From: Marisa cornuarietis
Lineage: Eukaryota; Mollusca; Gastropoda; Architaenioglossa; Ampullariidae
DNA length: 64,000 bases
Assembly: GCA_004794655.1 (NCBI GenBank)
Contig: SMMW01000614.1
Location: 1,986,501 to 2,050,500 of the forward strand
Direction: 5' to 3'
Made by a program: the position numbers and the translations under genes. Below the pieces are notes generated by a model, which saw only the letters and a program-made list of their open reading frames with translations, was not told where the DNA came from and did not search any database. Positions 5,459-33,860 of the stretch are shown in pieces (position 1 is the stretch's first letter; the number at the start of each line of letters is the position of its first letter).

Positions 5459-8367
5459 ATGGGTACGTGCGCTTCAACAGGAGCAAGGAATATAACCCAA
5501 GAAGTACAAAGGGGTTCGCCTTTTCCGGTAGGTAAAACAAACTCTGAGAATAAGGTGATAGGAGAAAGTCAAAACTGTATGTGAAATAAAAAAAATTAAT
5601 AGATTGATGATAGAAAAGAAACTTACTTGAAAATTGTCAAATTTTTAAATTAATATTTAATTAGAAATATATTTCTTAACTAGGAAGTCAAACACATTTT
5701 GCACGTGCAACCACTATTAGGTGATTAATATACTTCATCATTCTTTTTTTCTATAATTAAATTGGAATTCCCCTTACCAGATTATAAATCCTATTTACTA
5801 TCATTCAAGTAAATAGCCAAAGAATGGACACATGTAGGAAGAGTTTGCAAGTAATTTGGACAAAGTAAGGGACAAGGTGGTCACACCGTGATCATTTTTT
5901 GTTAAGGATGGTCTTAAAGCCATTAGCTCCTGAAATACAACCATCTTTTATGGAAGAAACTGCTTACAACGATATATTGTTTCTGATGCCTTGCATAAAT
6001 TTACTGAAGCAATCTGCAAATAAAAAACCACTTTGTGAACATTTGTAAAGTGTTCCTTTCTGAAAAACAGAAAACCCCAAAGATGTATGCTTATTTCGAA
6101 AAATGGAGAACAAGACCAAGAAACTTACTTGCCGATGCGTATCCCCAAATCATTGAATGAAACGCCAAACTATGGTATGGTATGGTATGGTTCCCCTTTT
6201 ACAAATGCTGCCCAAAAGGTTTACTCATAGAGATGAATAAGTGCAACTGAGTAAATCGAATGTTTTATGTTAAGCTGTTCAGTTTCTAAAACAAAATTGA
6301 AACAGAAACAAGTTCTTAGCATGTCTCTCTTGAACTGTATACATGTAGTTGTCATCTTTTACTGTGACGTTTACATCTAATTTCCTAACGGCAACAAAAT
6401 ATAGATGATATGAGATCAAACATATTAAAAATTCGTTGATTTCGAAGTTTCTGAGTAAAATTGGATATTTATTTCCTGAACACAGGAACTCGTCCGCGTG
6501 ATGATAATAGGCCAGACCGGAAACGGAAAGAGTTCTCTCGGAAATACACTTTTACAAAATGAAGTCTTTAACTTTGACAATGCATGGAGTGCCACTACAA
6601 CAGAGTGTATGTGGAAACATGGATTAATTGATGGGACCAGCCTGAGTGTAAGTGATTTTGTAGCTTATTTCTAGCATTGAAGTTTTCCTCAGGATAAAAA
6701 AGCGATCTTTTATTTTATTGATTGCAATGCGTTTCTGTTCTACGTTTTTTACAAATCTTTTCAGAATTAAATCGCATTTTTATGAAGGTAACGGATACAC
6801 CCGGCTTAAGCAACCTCAGTAAAGAAGAAATCATCAAGGAACTGAGTAAAAGCTTTGTTCTGACCTGTCCGGGCCCTCACGTGGTCATCATAGTACTTCG
6901 ATGTGATCGTCCATTCACAAAAGTTAGTCGCAACTTTCTCGTAAAGTATTTTCAATTAACTTTTATATACTGTCTGTCTGTCTGTCTGTCTGTCTGTCTG
7001 TCTGTCTGTCTGTCTGTCTGTCTGTCTGTCTGTCTGTCTGTCTGTCTGTCTGTCTGTCTGTCTGATACCTCAGTAAAAGCAAAATTTTGAAATTTCCATT
7101 GAGAATTGTATGAATCTATTGACCATAGCGAAAATAGCTTGAAAAGAAATAGCTTGTAAACACGAAGCTGTAATTCAATGATAAGGAAACAAATAAAAAT
7201 GGTTCTAAAGGCATGCGATATTTGTGATATGCAATTATAGCTCCTAATATTAACTGAAATATTTTTTCTTCAATTACTAGGAAGAACATACCACAGTAAT
7301 GACACTCCTGGACCTCCTTGTAGACAAAGATCGTCGTTTTCTTATGATAGTCTTTGCTGGAGGAGACAGTCTTTCGGCTTCAGAGGGCAAGTGTTTTAGC
7401 GAAGTCTTTTTTATATTTTAATAGTTTATCATTTTCTCTCGTTTCTATTAAGATAGCAAGCGTCATTTAGATATTACACGTTACAAAAATATCTAATGGT
7501 TTTAATCCTTGAGCAGATGGCATGCAGCTGGCTCTTCAGAATAAGCTGCTGAAGGCTCCTGAAAGTTTGAACGAAGTTTTGAAAGAATCGGGTGGCGCTT
7601 ATTGTGCCGTAGACAATACCGGTCCATGTCAAGAAGGAAAAAGAAAACACCAAGCAACACTCGTCTTCAGCATGATTAAAGTAAGCTTTGAAATTTTGTT
7701 AGGACCCAATCAGATCAGACTTCCTATTAACAAAGAATATAATCAAAAGTAAATTATTTTTTCTGTCAAATTATTTCTCTTAAATATAACTCCTTAATCA
7801 CTGACTAAATGCGAAAAAACAAAGAATTTTAGTCCCTACGAAAATAAAGATTGGATTGCACTAGTCGGATTTGTAAACACTTTAAACAAGCATCGCTGTA
7901 AAATAAAGGCACTGAAAGGCTAGAGATACCTGCTTTAAATGCAAAGGAAATGTACAAACATGGTTTTGGAAACAGAGATACATGTCTGTTGACTTTTGAC
8001 GTGCAAGTTATAAGAAATAATTTCTAACCAATGTGAAATACTCTTTATATTTAGTGGATTATGACAGTTTTAACTTTGTCTATATTTTGTCGTACCAAAG
8101 ACCCTGATTAAGAGAAACAACGGAGAATGCTTCACCAACGAGAGATGGGAAGAATACAATAAGATTGTACAAGCAGAAGTAGAGCTTCTTCAGAAGACTA
8201 AACACCTGTCGCAAACAGAAGCCGAGAATCAAGTTCGAAACGCCGTTGTTGAAGGAAGATCTTGGGAAAGAATAGGAGAAAGAATGCTGCAAATAGGAAA
8301 GGATTACATAGTTCCTGCCATATCAGCGGCCCGAGGGTTAGCGCCAGTCCTTGGGCTGAAGTTCTAG
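5459..8367 (+). CDS. GIMAP/AIG1-type GTPase with predicted N-terminal acylation (six exons, about 300 aa)
   Basis: Proposed exons: 5459-5527, 6486-6647, 6788-6922, 7281-7386, 7517-7680 and 8101-8367. All junctions keep frame and give 301 codons including the stop. Exon 1 starts MGTCASTGARN, a fit to N-myristoylation (G2, S6) with Cys4 available for palmitoylation. Exon 2 has the P-loop GQTGNGKSS (G1); exon 3 has VTDTPGL (G3) and CPGPHVVIIVL, the AIG1 hydrophobic box; exon 4 has FAGGD at the G4 position; exon 5 has YCAVDN at the G5 region. The last exon encodes a Lys/Glu-rich segment and a hydrophobic end, AISAARGLAPVLGLKF. Intron 4 uses a GC donor (g|gcaagt). A (TCTG)n tract fills part of intron 3. 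GIMAPs are membrane-associated GTPases linked to immune cell survival and, in molluscs, to responses to infection. Exon 1 is the least certain part, but its phase and donor gtaggt fit. Confidence 0.85.
6968..7063 (+). repeat. (TCTG)n microsatellite
   Basis: About 23 uninterrupted tetranucleotide units lie 45 bases past the exon 3 donor of the GIMAP gene at 5459-8367. Confidence 0.95.
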
Positions 8368-32630: not shown

Positions 32631-33860
32631 ATCCATTAGGGGGTGGGGGGATGGGAACTGAGAGGAAATCCGTCTGTTAATGATGTTACAGTGTTAATTG
32701 TTCATATATGTAAATCGAAGCCGCATACAATTGAAGTATTCAGATCAGCTGCTGAAGCAGACACCCTAAGCATGCTGAAAACGAGACGAAATGCTTACGA
32801 TGCAGTTTTCATGTTGTATATACTTGCGGTTTATAAACCAGTAAGGCTTATTTGTGAAAGAAATTATGGCTTTTAAAAATTTAGTGGATGCGGCTTATTA
32901 ACAGGCGCTTTATATATCAAAATTTACGGTAAATGTTTATTTTAGTATATGTCTTCTTACCCTGTTTCATTCATAACATACCTGCAATTAAATTTCGTCT
33001 TCCCACGTAATGAGATTCATAGTTACATTTGGCAGACTATCATAAAAATGTTTAAAACAAACATTTTATTCGTGAAAAGGTCTTGGATACTCCGGACATC
33101 TTCAGCCTGAGTTATAGCCCTGAAAATAAGAGGAAAGAAGTTGAGAGGTGGAAGACACTGACGTCCCCCGATCAGCCGATCATCCTGCTGGCCGTGCGCC
33201 TCGATATGGACTACACGGTCGATGATTACGTCATCTACAGAGAGTTCAAACGGCTTTGGGCAAACGACTCCGACATCAGAGGTCTCCTGGTTGTAGCCTT
33301 CACCTTCGGAGACCGTCTACACGGAGACTTCATGCGGAAGATGAGGGACGTGAGCCTGGAATTGAAGAGTGTCTTGAAGGATGCTTGCAACCGCTACGTG
33401 ATTTTTGAAGTGGATGAAAGTGTAGGTATTTATGTTTTAGGATAAGTGTGTGTGTGTGCGCGCGTGTGTGTGTGTGTGTGTGTGTGTGTGTGTGTGTGTG
33501 TGTGTGTTGAGTTCGTGGCTTACCAATACCAAGGCCAATTAGAGGCTCTCACTTCTACACTTTTTCTTTCCTTTTGCTCCTCAGGATAAGGACAGAGATG
33601 AGCAGTTCAACCAGTTTTCTGAGGTCATTAACGAATGGCAAACACAGCACAGGTGTCTTCGTGTCCAGAGAGTCACGACTGCTGTGGTAGTCATCATAGC
33701 CCTATTAGCTGCAGGCAGCTCTGTCATGGGAGTCATCTACAATGATATGGAACTGACCGCGGGAGCTGGACTGCTGTGTCTCGCCCTGGCTGTGCTGTGG
33801 TATCGGATGAGGTCACTGGGCTCACTACCACCGCCGAAGATCATCATGAGCCACGTGTAG
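32279..33860 (+). CDS. GIMAP/AIG1-type GTPase with two C-terminal transmembrane helices (three exons, about 259 aa)
   Basis: Exons: 32279-32440, 33080-33421 and 33585-33860; all phase 0. It starts MSHVFVIVGKTGTGKSR (G1). Exon 2 begins VLDTPDIFSL (G3, DTPD for DTPG), then PDQPIILLAVRL in place of the PGPH box, and VVAFTFGDRL (G4, TxxD), ending RYVIFEVDES. Exon 3 has a charged linker and two hydrophobic spans, TAVVVIIALLAAGSSVMGVI and AGAGLLCLALAVLW, then a short basic tail. G3 and G4 lie in one exon here, unlike the genes at 5459 and 21658, so this is a separate subfamily, closest to the pseudogene at 16050. Donor 1 is gtgcga. The acceptor at 32249 would allow upstream coding (PSYARYVKA) and a further 5' exon. 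ATTAAA near 33952 could be the poly(A) signal. A (TG)n tract lies in intron 2. Confidence 0.87.
32675..32931 (+). mobile_element. Pogo-like DNA transposon remnant (copy 1)
   Basis: It contains MLKTRRNAYDAVF at 32772, resembling the N-terminal start of pogo/CENP-B-like transposases (MPKTKRNAYDAAFKL), then GATGCGGCTTATTAACAGG and AAATTTACGGTA, a typical terminus of these elements. A second copy is at 42345-42617. It lies in intron 1 of the transmembrane GIMAP gene. Internal parts are missing. Confidence 0.6.
33449..33507 (+). repeat. (TG)n microsatellite
   Basis: About 28 TG units with a GCGC interruption, in GIMAP intron 2. Confidence 0.9.

What the first reader, a model, noticed from the sequence alone, without database searches (positions are those of the whole stretch)
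5459..33860. Three neighbouring GIMAP paralogues carry three different predicted membrane anchors
The gene at 5459-8367 starts MGTCAS, fitting N-myristoylation plus Cys4 palmitoylation. The gene at 21658-24981 ends CSLM, a farnesyl-type CaaX box. The gene at 32279-33860 ends with two transmembrane helices. The GTPase cores are recognisably paralogous, so one local cluster seems to have sampled three ways to reach membranes. Vertebrate GIMAPs are known mainly for C-terminal hydrophobic anchors; lipid anchors at either end would be a notable diversification.
Basis: partly seen in the sequence, partly recalled or inferred. Interest (0 to 1): 0.8.

Follow-up and report, generated by a model that had tools for sequence, protein, structure and literature searches.

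The report
Snail immune GTPases with different anchors
Three neighbouring immune-type GTPase genes of a snail appear to attach to membranes in three different ways, and relatives show that one way, a fat-attachment tail, is common in this snail gene family, while one gene seems to have lost that tail and may have gained a different anchor at its other end.

Summary
The three genes are real AIG1/GIMAP-type GTPases and the exon coordinates hold, except that gene 3 probably starts in an unfound upstream exon. The window lies in a 534-Mb genome with at least 154 AIG1 exon matches; the nearest proteins are from the apple snail Pomacea. The reading changes in one way: CSLM is not a local novelty but a common end of caenogastropod GIMAPs. 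19 of 27 named snail proteins found carry a CaaX end, so do the six other g1/g2-type last exons found, and so do 31 of 69 resolved AIG1 ends in the own genome, of farnesyl and geranylgeranyl type, against 21 of 2116 window ORF ends. The two-helix tail recurs in g3's two nearest paralogues, with a DTPD G3 motif as in human GIMAP2. The odd one is gene 1: it nests among CaaX-bearing snail genes, has no CaaX, no start codon before its first G-domain strand, and the best-scoring nearby leader exon begins MGTCAS, a motif class seen once in 1602 ATGs. So: an inferred anchor switch in gene 1, a widespread prenyl-type end in gene 2, a subfamily hairpin in gene 3. No transcript or lipid was observed.

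The parts
5459..5527 (+). g1 predicted leader exon, MGTCASTGARNITQEVQRGSPFP: N-myristoylation motif (G2, S6) and Cys4
   Evidence: donor rank 3 of 83 candidates, best of 29 within 5200-6486; motif class 1 of 1602 ATGs; leader disordered in the model
6486..6647 (+). g1 exon 2, P-loop GQTGNGKS; no start codon before the first G-domain strand, stop codon just upstream of the acceptor
6788..6922 (+). g1 exon 3, G3 DTPG and conserved box CPGPHVVIIV
7281..7386 (+). g1 exon 4, GC donor
7517..7680 (+). g1 exon 5, G5 region
8101..8367 (+). g1 last exon; helical extension ending VLGLKF, no CaaX
21658..21822 (+). g2 first coding exon, MEEIRVVLLGKTGSGKS; acceptor-like site 2 nt before the ATG
22431..22571 (+). 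g2 exon 2, G3 DTPG and conserved box
23679..23784 (+). g2 exon 3, GC donor
24219..24376 (+). g2 exon 4, G5 region
24703..24981 (+). g2 last exon, ends in CaaX box CSLM (codons 24967-24978)
32250..32278 (+). probable coding sequence upstream of the proposed g3 ATG (GPSYARYVKA), behind an acceptor-like site
   Evidence: P0045 keeps this frame without the Met
32279..32440 (+). g3 P-loop exon, GKTGTGKS
33080..33421 (+). g3 long exon, G3 variant DTPD, G4 FTFGD
33585..33860 (+). g3 last exon with two hydrophobic segments (residues 201-219 and 223-241)
   Evidence: tail alignable in L051 and L052

Best explanation
These are three members of a large, clustered caenogastropod GIMAP family in which a conserved GTPase core, in known GIMAPs a GTP-dependent dimer, is joined to exchangeable membrane anchors. 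g2 carries the family's common anchor, a farnesyl-type CaaX box. g3 belongs to a DTPD subfamily with a C-terminal membrane segment, here a two-helix hairpin, and works like human GIMAP2: a membrane-embedded, poorly hydrolysing partner or scaffold. g1 descends from CaaX-bearing genes but lost both the CaaX box and the start codon of its first G-domain exon; translation then starts in a leader exon whose N-terminus can be N-myristoylated at Gly2 and palmitoylated at Cys4, moving the anchor from the C-terminus to the N-terminus. Shown by sequence: the gene structures, motifs, spread of the CaaX, its absence in g1, the recurrence of the hairpin in two paralogues. Inferred: use of the g1 leader, all lipid attachment, membranes reached, GTPase behaviour, immune role.
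Against: No RNA evidence. The MGTCAS frame is open for 240 nt upstream, so the motif could be internal to a longer exon, although no in-frame ATG lies there. Its -3 base is C, a weak start context. No paralogue hit covers the leader (a 23-residue stretch is hard to find by such a search) and no orthologue was found. g1 departs from a few nearly invariant columns, among them the P-loop K (GQTG for GKTG). Counting every row without a CaaX end as lacking it, truncated models included, the tree needs 8 to 9 changes of that state, and in the snail-centred tree 154 of 500 shuffles do as well, so gains and losses of CaaX cannot be dated from it. g2 has no strong hydrophobic stretch before its box (0.53). 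g3's second hydrophobic segment is borderline (1.65), and 248 of 2000 shuffles of g3 also give two such windows. GIMAP2-likeness of g3 may be convergent; g3 is a very long branch.
Confidence: 0.55

Rival explanations
1. g1 is a soluble, anchorless GIMAP (like mammalian GIMAP4, 6, 7): it lost the CaaX, and its true leader exon is another one, or MGTCAS is internal to a longer N-terminus. g2 and g3 stay as described.
For: 80 other candidate leader exon/donor pairs from 33 other ATGs exist between 3000 and 6486, and one other donor (3057) scores higher; open frame upstream of 5459; conservation of the leader could not be tested for want of an orthologue.
Against: The 5459 exon has the best donor within 5200-6486, sits in the local GC peak, and its ATG is the only one of the 34 with a myristoylation-type motif.
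Confidence: 0.33
2. g1 is a decaying duplicate that has lost its start and its CaaX and is on the way to a pseudogene.
For: Both losses fall in one gene; longer branch than g2 (1.08 against 0.39); departures at nearly invariant columns; the cluster contains stop-bearing AIG1 fragments.
Against: Six exons open over 900 nt with exon borders shared with g2; P-loop GxGKS, DTPG and conserved box kept; confident fold, mean pLDDT 85.3.
Confidence: 0.1
3. The lipid motifs are chance strings at gene ends with no anchoring role.
For: No biochemical evidence exists here.
Against: 31 of 69 against 21 of 2116 for CaaX; Met at -1 kept in 25 of 26 while the residues before the box vary.
Confidence: 0.02

Closest known systems
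Human GIMAP2
   Same: AIG1 GTPase; DTPD in G3; double C-terminal hydrophobic segment; best sequence and structure match of g3 (PMC8201404 passages)
   Different: 24-29% identity over the G domain only; tail sequences not compared; snail relatives of g3 also have single-helix and other tails
Human GIMAP7 and GIMAP4
   Same: GIMAP7 is the best structural match of g1, GIMAP4 the best solved-structure sequence match of g2
   Different: GIMAP1-9 have no lipid motifs (PMC3804274 passage); g2 has CaaX, g1 a putative acylation motif
Arabidopsis AIG1 (IAN8)
   Same: AIG1 GTPase that a review calls prenylated (PMC6866125 passages)
   Different: plant protein; its sequence was not looked at and a shared origin of the CaaX was not tested
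IRG and GBP immune GTPases
   Same: other immune GTPase families use an N-terminal myristate (Irga6 Gly2, PMC4774019 passages) or a C-terminal CaaX (GBP1, 2, 5: start of the abstract of PMC2998424 in the listing)
   Different: dynamin-type large GTPases, not AIG1; here both anchor ends are predicted inside one AIG1 family
Biomphalaria glabrata AIG family
   Same: large gastropod AIG1 family with tandem arrays and 12 transmembrane members (PMC7053062 passages)
   Different: its main text holds no mention of prenyl, CaaX or myrist; its sequences were not examined here

Membership tests
AIG1/GIMAP GTPases | AIG1 domain above the Pfam cut-off | tested here: met
   131.5, 163.9, 101.3 bits against 27
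AIG1/GIMAP GTPases | G1 P-loop, G3 and conserved box | tested here: met
   g1 and g2 keep GxTGxGKS, DTPG and CPGPHVVIIV; g3 keeps G1, but has DTPD and a degenerate conserved box
AIG1/GIMAP GTPases | C-terminal helical extension folding on the G domain | tested here: met
   model of g1: helices 197-217, 226-246, 250-263, 267-289; GIMAP7 chains align over 247-299 columns at rmsd 4.2-8.8
AIG1/GIMAP GTPases | coiled coil (criterion of the Biomphalaria paper) | not tested
   no coiled-coil prediction run
CaaX-prenylated proteins (g2) | CaaX at the very C-terminus, shared with relatives | tested here: met
CaaX-prenylated proteins (g2) | prenyl group attached | not testable with these tools
   needs labelling or mass spectrometry
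N-myristoylated proteins (g1) | Gly2 motif (PS00008 pattern, recalled) | tested here: met
   MGTCAST matches; 6 of 1602 ATGs do
N-myristoylated proteins (g1) | Gly2 follows the real initiator Met | not testable with these tools
   no transcript data; best-scoring nearby leader
N-myristoylated proteins (g1) | motif conserved in relatives | tested here: inconclusive
   no orthologue found; no paralogue hit covers the leader; only P0030 of Nucella among 46 homologues also fits the pattern
GIMAP2-type (g3) | double C-terminal hydrophobic segment | tested here: met
   2.57 and borderline 1.65; two helices in the model; alignable tail in two paralogues
GIMAP2-type (g3) | orthology to GIMAP2 | tested here: inconclusive
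   no GIMAP2 in the tree; g3 end branch 4.5-4.8
GIMAP2-type (g3) | binds but does not hydrolyse GTP alone | not testable with these tools
   needs enzyme assay

The most novel reading that the evidence does not exclude
Caenogastropod GIMAPs are a lipid-anchored branch of the family in which anchors are interchangeable modules: farnesyl or geranylgeranyl CaaX in a large share of genes, membrane hairpins in the DTPD subfamily, and in at least g1 a true switch of anchor from the C-terminus to an N-terminal myristoyl-palmitoyl signal, made possible by an intron that ends right before the ancestral start codon, so that losing that ATG makes an upstream leader exon coding.
Probability: 0.4. Interest if true: 0.72.

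Novelty: new variant of a known kind. Interest (0 to 1): 0.6.

Why it matters
Mammalian GIMAPs are tied to membranes by hydrophobic tails or not at all. An expanded invertebrate branch in which many members are predicted to be prenylated, with paralogues differing in anchor type, would give a natural set of constructs for asking how the anchor decides where an immune-type GTPase assembles. It would also put GIMAPs beside IRGs and GBPs, which use the same kinds of lipid anchor, and is directly testable with prenylation inhibitors and tagged proteins.

Tried and rejected
Hidden CaaX for g1: the C-x-x-M-stop strings on the + strand of the window are at 14688, 16145, 24570, 24967, 26052, 31708, 32699, 41778 and 62893, none near 8101-9000, so no alternative CaaX-M last exon lies close behind g1; other CaaX types were not scanned there. 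Homologous 5' regions upstream of g1, g2 and g3: only short, weak matches. Leader exon for g3: the best phase-1 candidate is weak (31534-31648, score 2.77, among 62); left open. The idea that all three anchors are new to this cluster was dropped. The first C-end reading of L001-L030 used the wrong strand for 12 loci and was replaced. My note says 27 of 30 D-x-P-G; the listing gives 28 of 30 (all but L013 and L027).

Limits of the counts. The 26 tails were picked because they end in Cys-4, so 26 of 26 Cys is by construction; the unpicked count is 28 of 46 Cys-4 and 26 of 46 CaaX, where P0045 (CQVT) is an apparent intron read-through and P0018 (CKQS) does not fit the pattern, while P0021 (CRTM) fits it only loosely. 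My patterns allow A, V, I, L, M, C, F, T or S third (without S, and with L in the last place among M, S, A, Q, C, L) and M, S, Q, A, C (farnesyl-type) or L, F, I (geranylgeranyl-type) last. Of the 8 named snail proteins without CaaX (P0006, P0008, P0025, P0026, P0028, P0030, P0036, P0037), two are named partial and others are short or look truncated; that they lack the true end is inference. Rows dropped from trees: P0006, P0007, P0036, P0037, P0045, and also g3, P0034, P0039, P0040-P0044 and P0046. The own-genome census holds 74 loci: g1-g3, L001-L036, L051-L085 (L037-L050 are first exons); five are unresolved (L055, L076, L083, L084, L085), and 6 of the 31 CaaX ends come from frames with stops inside (L003, L013, L022, L026, L030, L034). 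The 154 matches are exons, not genes, and 111 of 261 candidates there were not scored; many further matches were not fetched. Ends such as those of L009, L027, L058, L066 and L069 may not be true protein ends. Tails of L053, L054, L077, L078, L081 and L082 were assigned by position and open frame, not by homology to g3. First exons of L047, L049 and L050 were fetched but not put into. The donor weights and the PS00008 pattern are recalled.
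Full report
What is there. The window holds three AIG1 GTPase genes at the stated places. Joining the exons gives 300, 282 and 259 residues without internal stops, and all pass the AIG1 cut-off. g1 and g2 share exon borders, including a GC donor after exon 4 of g1 and exon 3 of g2; g3 has a different structure with one long middle exon. Around them are a partial AIG1 exon at the window's left end and a stop-bearing fragment on the minus strand. The window is part of a run of AIG1 genes on contig C490, with a second large run on C410; the own genome gave 154 exon matches, a lower bound. 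The nearest proteins are from Pomacea canaliculata, g2 at 61%, so the organism is a caenogastropod snail; that it is an ampullariid or near one is inference.

g2, the CaaX end. Of 46 homologues found for the three genes, 26 end in CaaX by my pattern: 19 of 27 named caenogastropod proteins (Pomacea 9 of 11, Babylonia 6 of 8, Batillaria 2 of 4, Nucella 1 of 3, Littorina 1 of 1), 6 of 11 from unnamed assemblies, and the one EukProt row; none of 5 fish and 2 bivalve proteins does. In the own genome, the g1 search listed six last exons besides those of g1 and g2, and all six end in Cys-4: CSIM, CSVM, CSLM, CSVI, CSLM, CSVM, the CSVI one in a frame with a stop. Over the AIG1 loci examined, 31 of 69 resolved ends are CaaX, 23 farnesyl-type (X = M or Q) and 8 geranylgeranyl-type (X = L or I); window ORFs end so in 21 of 2116 cases at 20 aa or more, 4 of 294 at 60 or more and 2 of 73 at 90 or more, g2 included. 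In tails picked for Cys-4, position -1 is Met in 25 of 26 and -3 is Ser in 21 of 26, while no position from -5 to -45 exceeds 12 of 26. A box kept while what lies before it drifts is what a prenylation signal should look like. Nine of the 26 CaaX homologues also have a hydrophobic stretch (1.6 or more) before the box, a possible second membrane signal; g2 does not (0.53).

g1, the odd one. g1 lies within a clade of Pomacea genes and g2 (support 100/99; 89/94 without tails, leaders and long rows). Of the nine other rows of that clade seven end in CaaX; the two that do not are P0008, a 244-residue model that looks cut short, and P0001a, the front half of a two-domain protein. g1 ends VLGLKF. Its nearest neighbours (P0005 and P0012, 82/93) are not resolved. 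In g2 and in 8 of 11 paralogous first exons looked at, the start codon comes 0 to 2 nt behind an AG that looks like an acceptor, which suggests a 5'-UTR intron; three (L043-L045) have no ATG there and must, like g1, start further up. g1 has the acceptor but no ATG, and a stop lies just upstream, so it must take its start from an upstream exon or begin inside the first G-domain strand. Among 83 candidate leader exons between 3000 and 6486, the one at 5459-5527 ranks third by donor score, and the two above it share one donor at 3057; it ranks first of 29 within 5200-6486. It lies in a GC peak. Its N-terminus MGTCAST fits the myristoylation pattern, which 6 of 1602 window ATGs do; only this one also has S/T6 and a nearby Cys. 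In the structure model the leader is disordered (pLDDT under 50 over 1-11 and 13-18) and thus probably exposed. Against it: weak start context, an open frame upstream, no orthologue found, and no paralogue hit over the leader. One Nucella protein (P0030) also begins with a myristoylation-type motif (MGQEES) and lacks CaaX, but its model may be incomplete.

g3, the hairpin. Hydrophobic windows of 2.57 and 1.65 near the C-terminus lie in two helices of the model, at low confidence. The two nearest paralogues, L051 and L052 (56% and 55% over the middle exon), end in an alignable two-helix tail (37% and 31%); L053 and L054 end in one hydrophobic segment, and L077, L078, L081 and L082 also show hydrophobic tails, while L080 ends CQLM and L079 in a Cys-rich string. 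g3 and L051-L055 read DTPD at G3, where 28 of 30 loci of L001-L030 read D-x-P-G. Human GIMAP2 also reads DTPD and is the best match by sequence and structure, though other GIMAPs score close to it. GIMAP2 has a double hydrophobic segment, goes to lipid droplets when overexpressed and binds GTP without hydrolysing it alone; GIMAP7 promotes its GTP hydrolysis (PMC8201404, passages). By analogy g3 would be a membrane-embedded partner for the lipid-anchored members. That step is inference. g3's own start remains open: P0045 lacks the Met, while L051 and L052 have one close by.

What is known. PMC3804274 (passage) says GIMAP1-9 lack prenylation or palmitoylation motifs. PMC6866125 (passages) calls Arabidopsis AIG1 prenylated. 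The Biomphalaria AIG paper PMC7053062 describes transmembrane members and holds no mention of prenyl, CaaX or myrist in its main text. Searches for GIMAP with prenylation, farnesyl and CaaX, AIG1 with CaaX and myristoyl, AIG1 with prenyl and snail, GIMAP with Pomacea, and two of GIMAP, mollusc and myristoylation (one search listed 20 of 79) showed no paper that I could recognise as reporting lipid anchors on animal GIMAPs. Only listings and the named passages were read, and only open-licence papers are held.

Verdict. Prenylation-type ends are a widespread feature of snail GIMAPs, hairpins recur in a subfamily, and g1 is a candidate for a real change of anchor. Interest 0.6: a specialist would be surprised by the extent of CaaX ends in this immune-type family, and the g1 switch is directly testable, but nothing has been observed beyond DNA.

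Noticed in passing
189-647 (+): Partial AIG1 exon at the window edge with G3 reading NTPE instead of DTPG; probably a degenerate or non-hydrolysing member.
   Followed up: partly
16095-16376 (-): AIG1 fragment with in-frame stops, much like g3: a decayed copy.
   Followed up: partly
7387 and 23785: GC donor at the same intron in g1 and g2.
   Followed up: no
L015, L018, L024, L011 (own genome C410): AIG1 frames ending in aromatic-rich tails (KVWSAIRGFF, TGWLFS) in place of CaaX: perhaps a fourth anchor class.
   Followed up: no
L060, L079, L080: Ends CCIH, CCKLCFK and CCQLM: Cys-rich ends that could be doubly lipidated.
   Followed up: no
L022: AIG1 frame with a run of RHHPEM repeats before a CAVQ end.
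   Followed up: no
49081-49599 (+): Sodium:dicarboxylate symporter (SDF) gene fragment beside the cluster.
   Followed up: no
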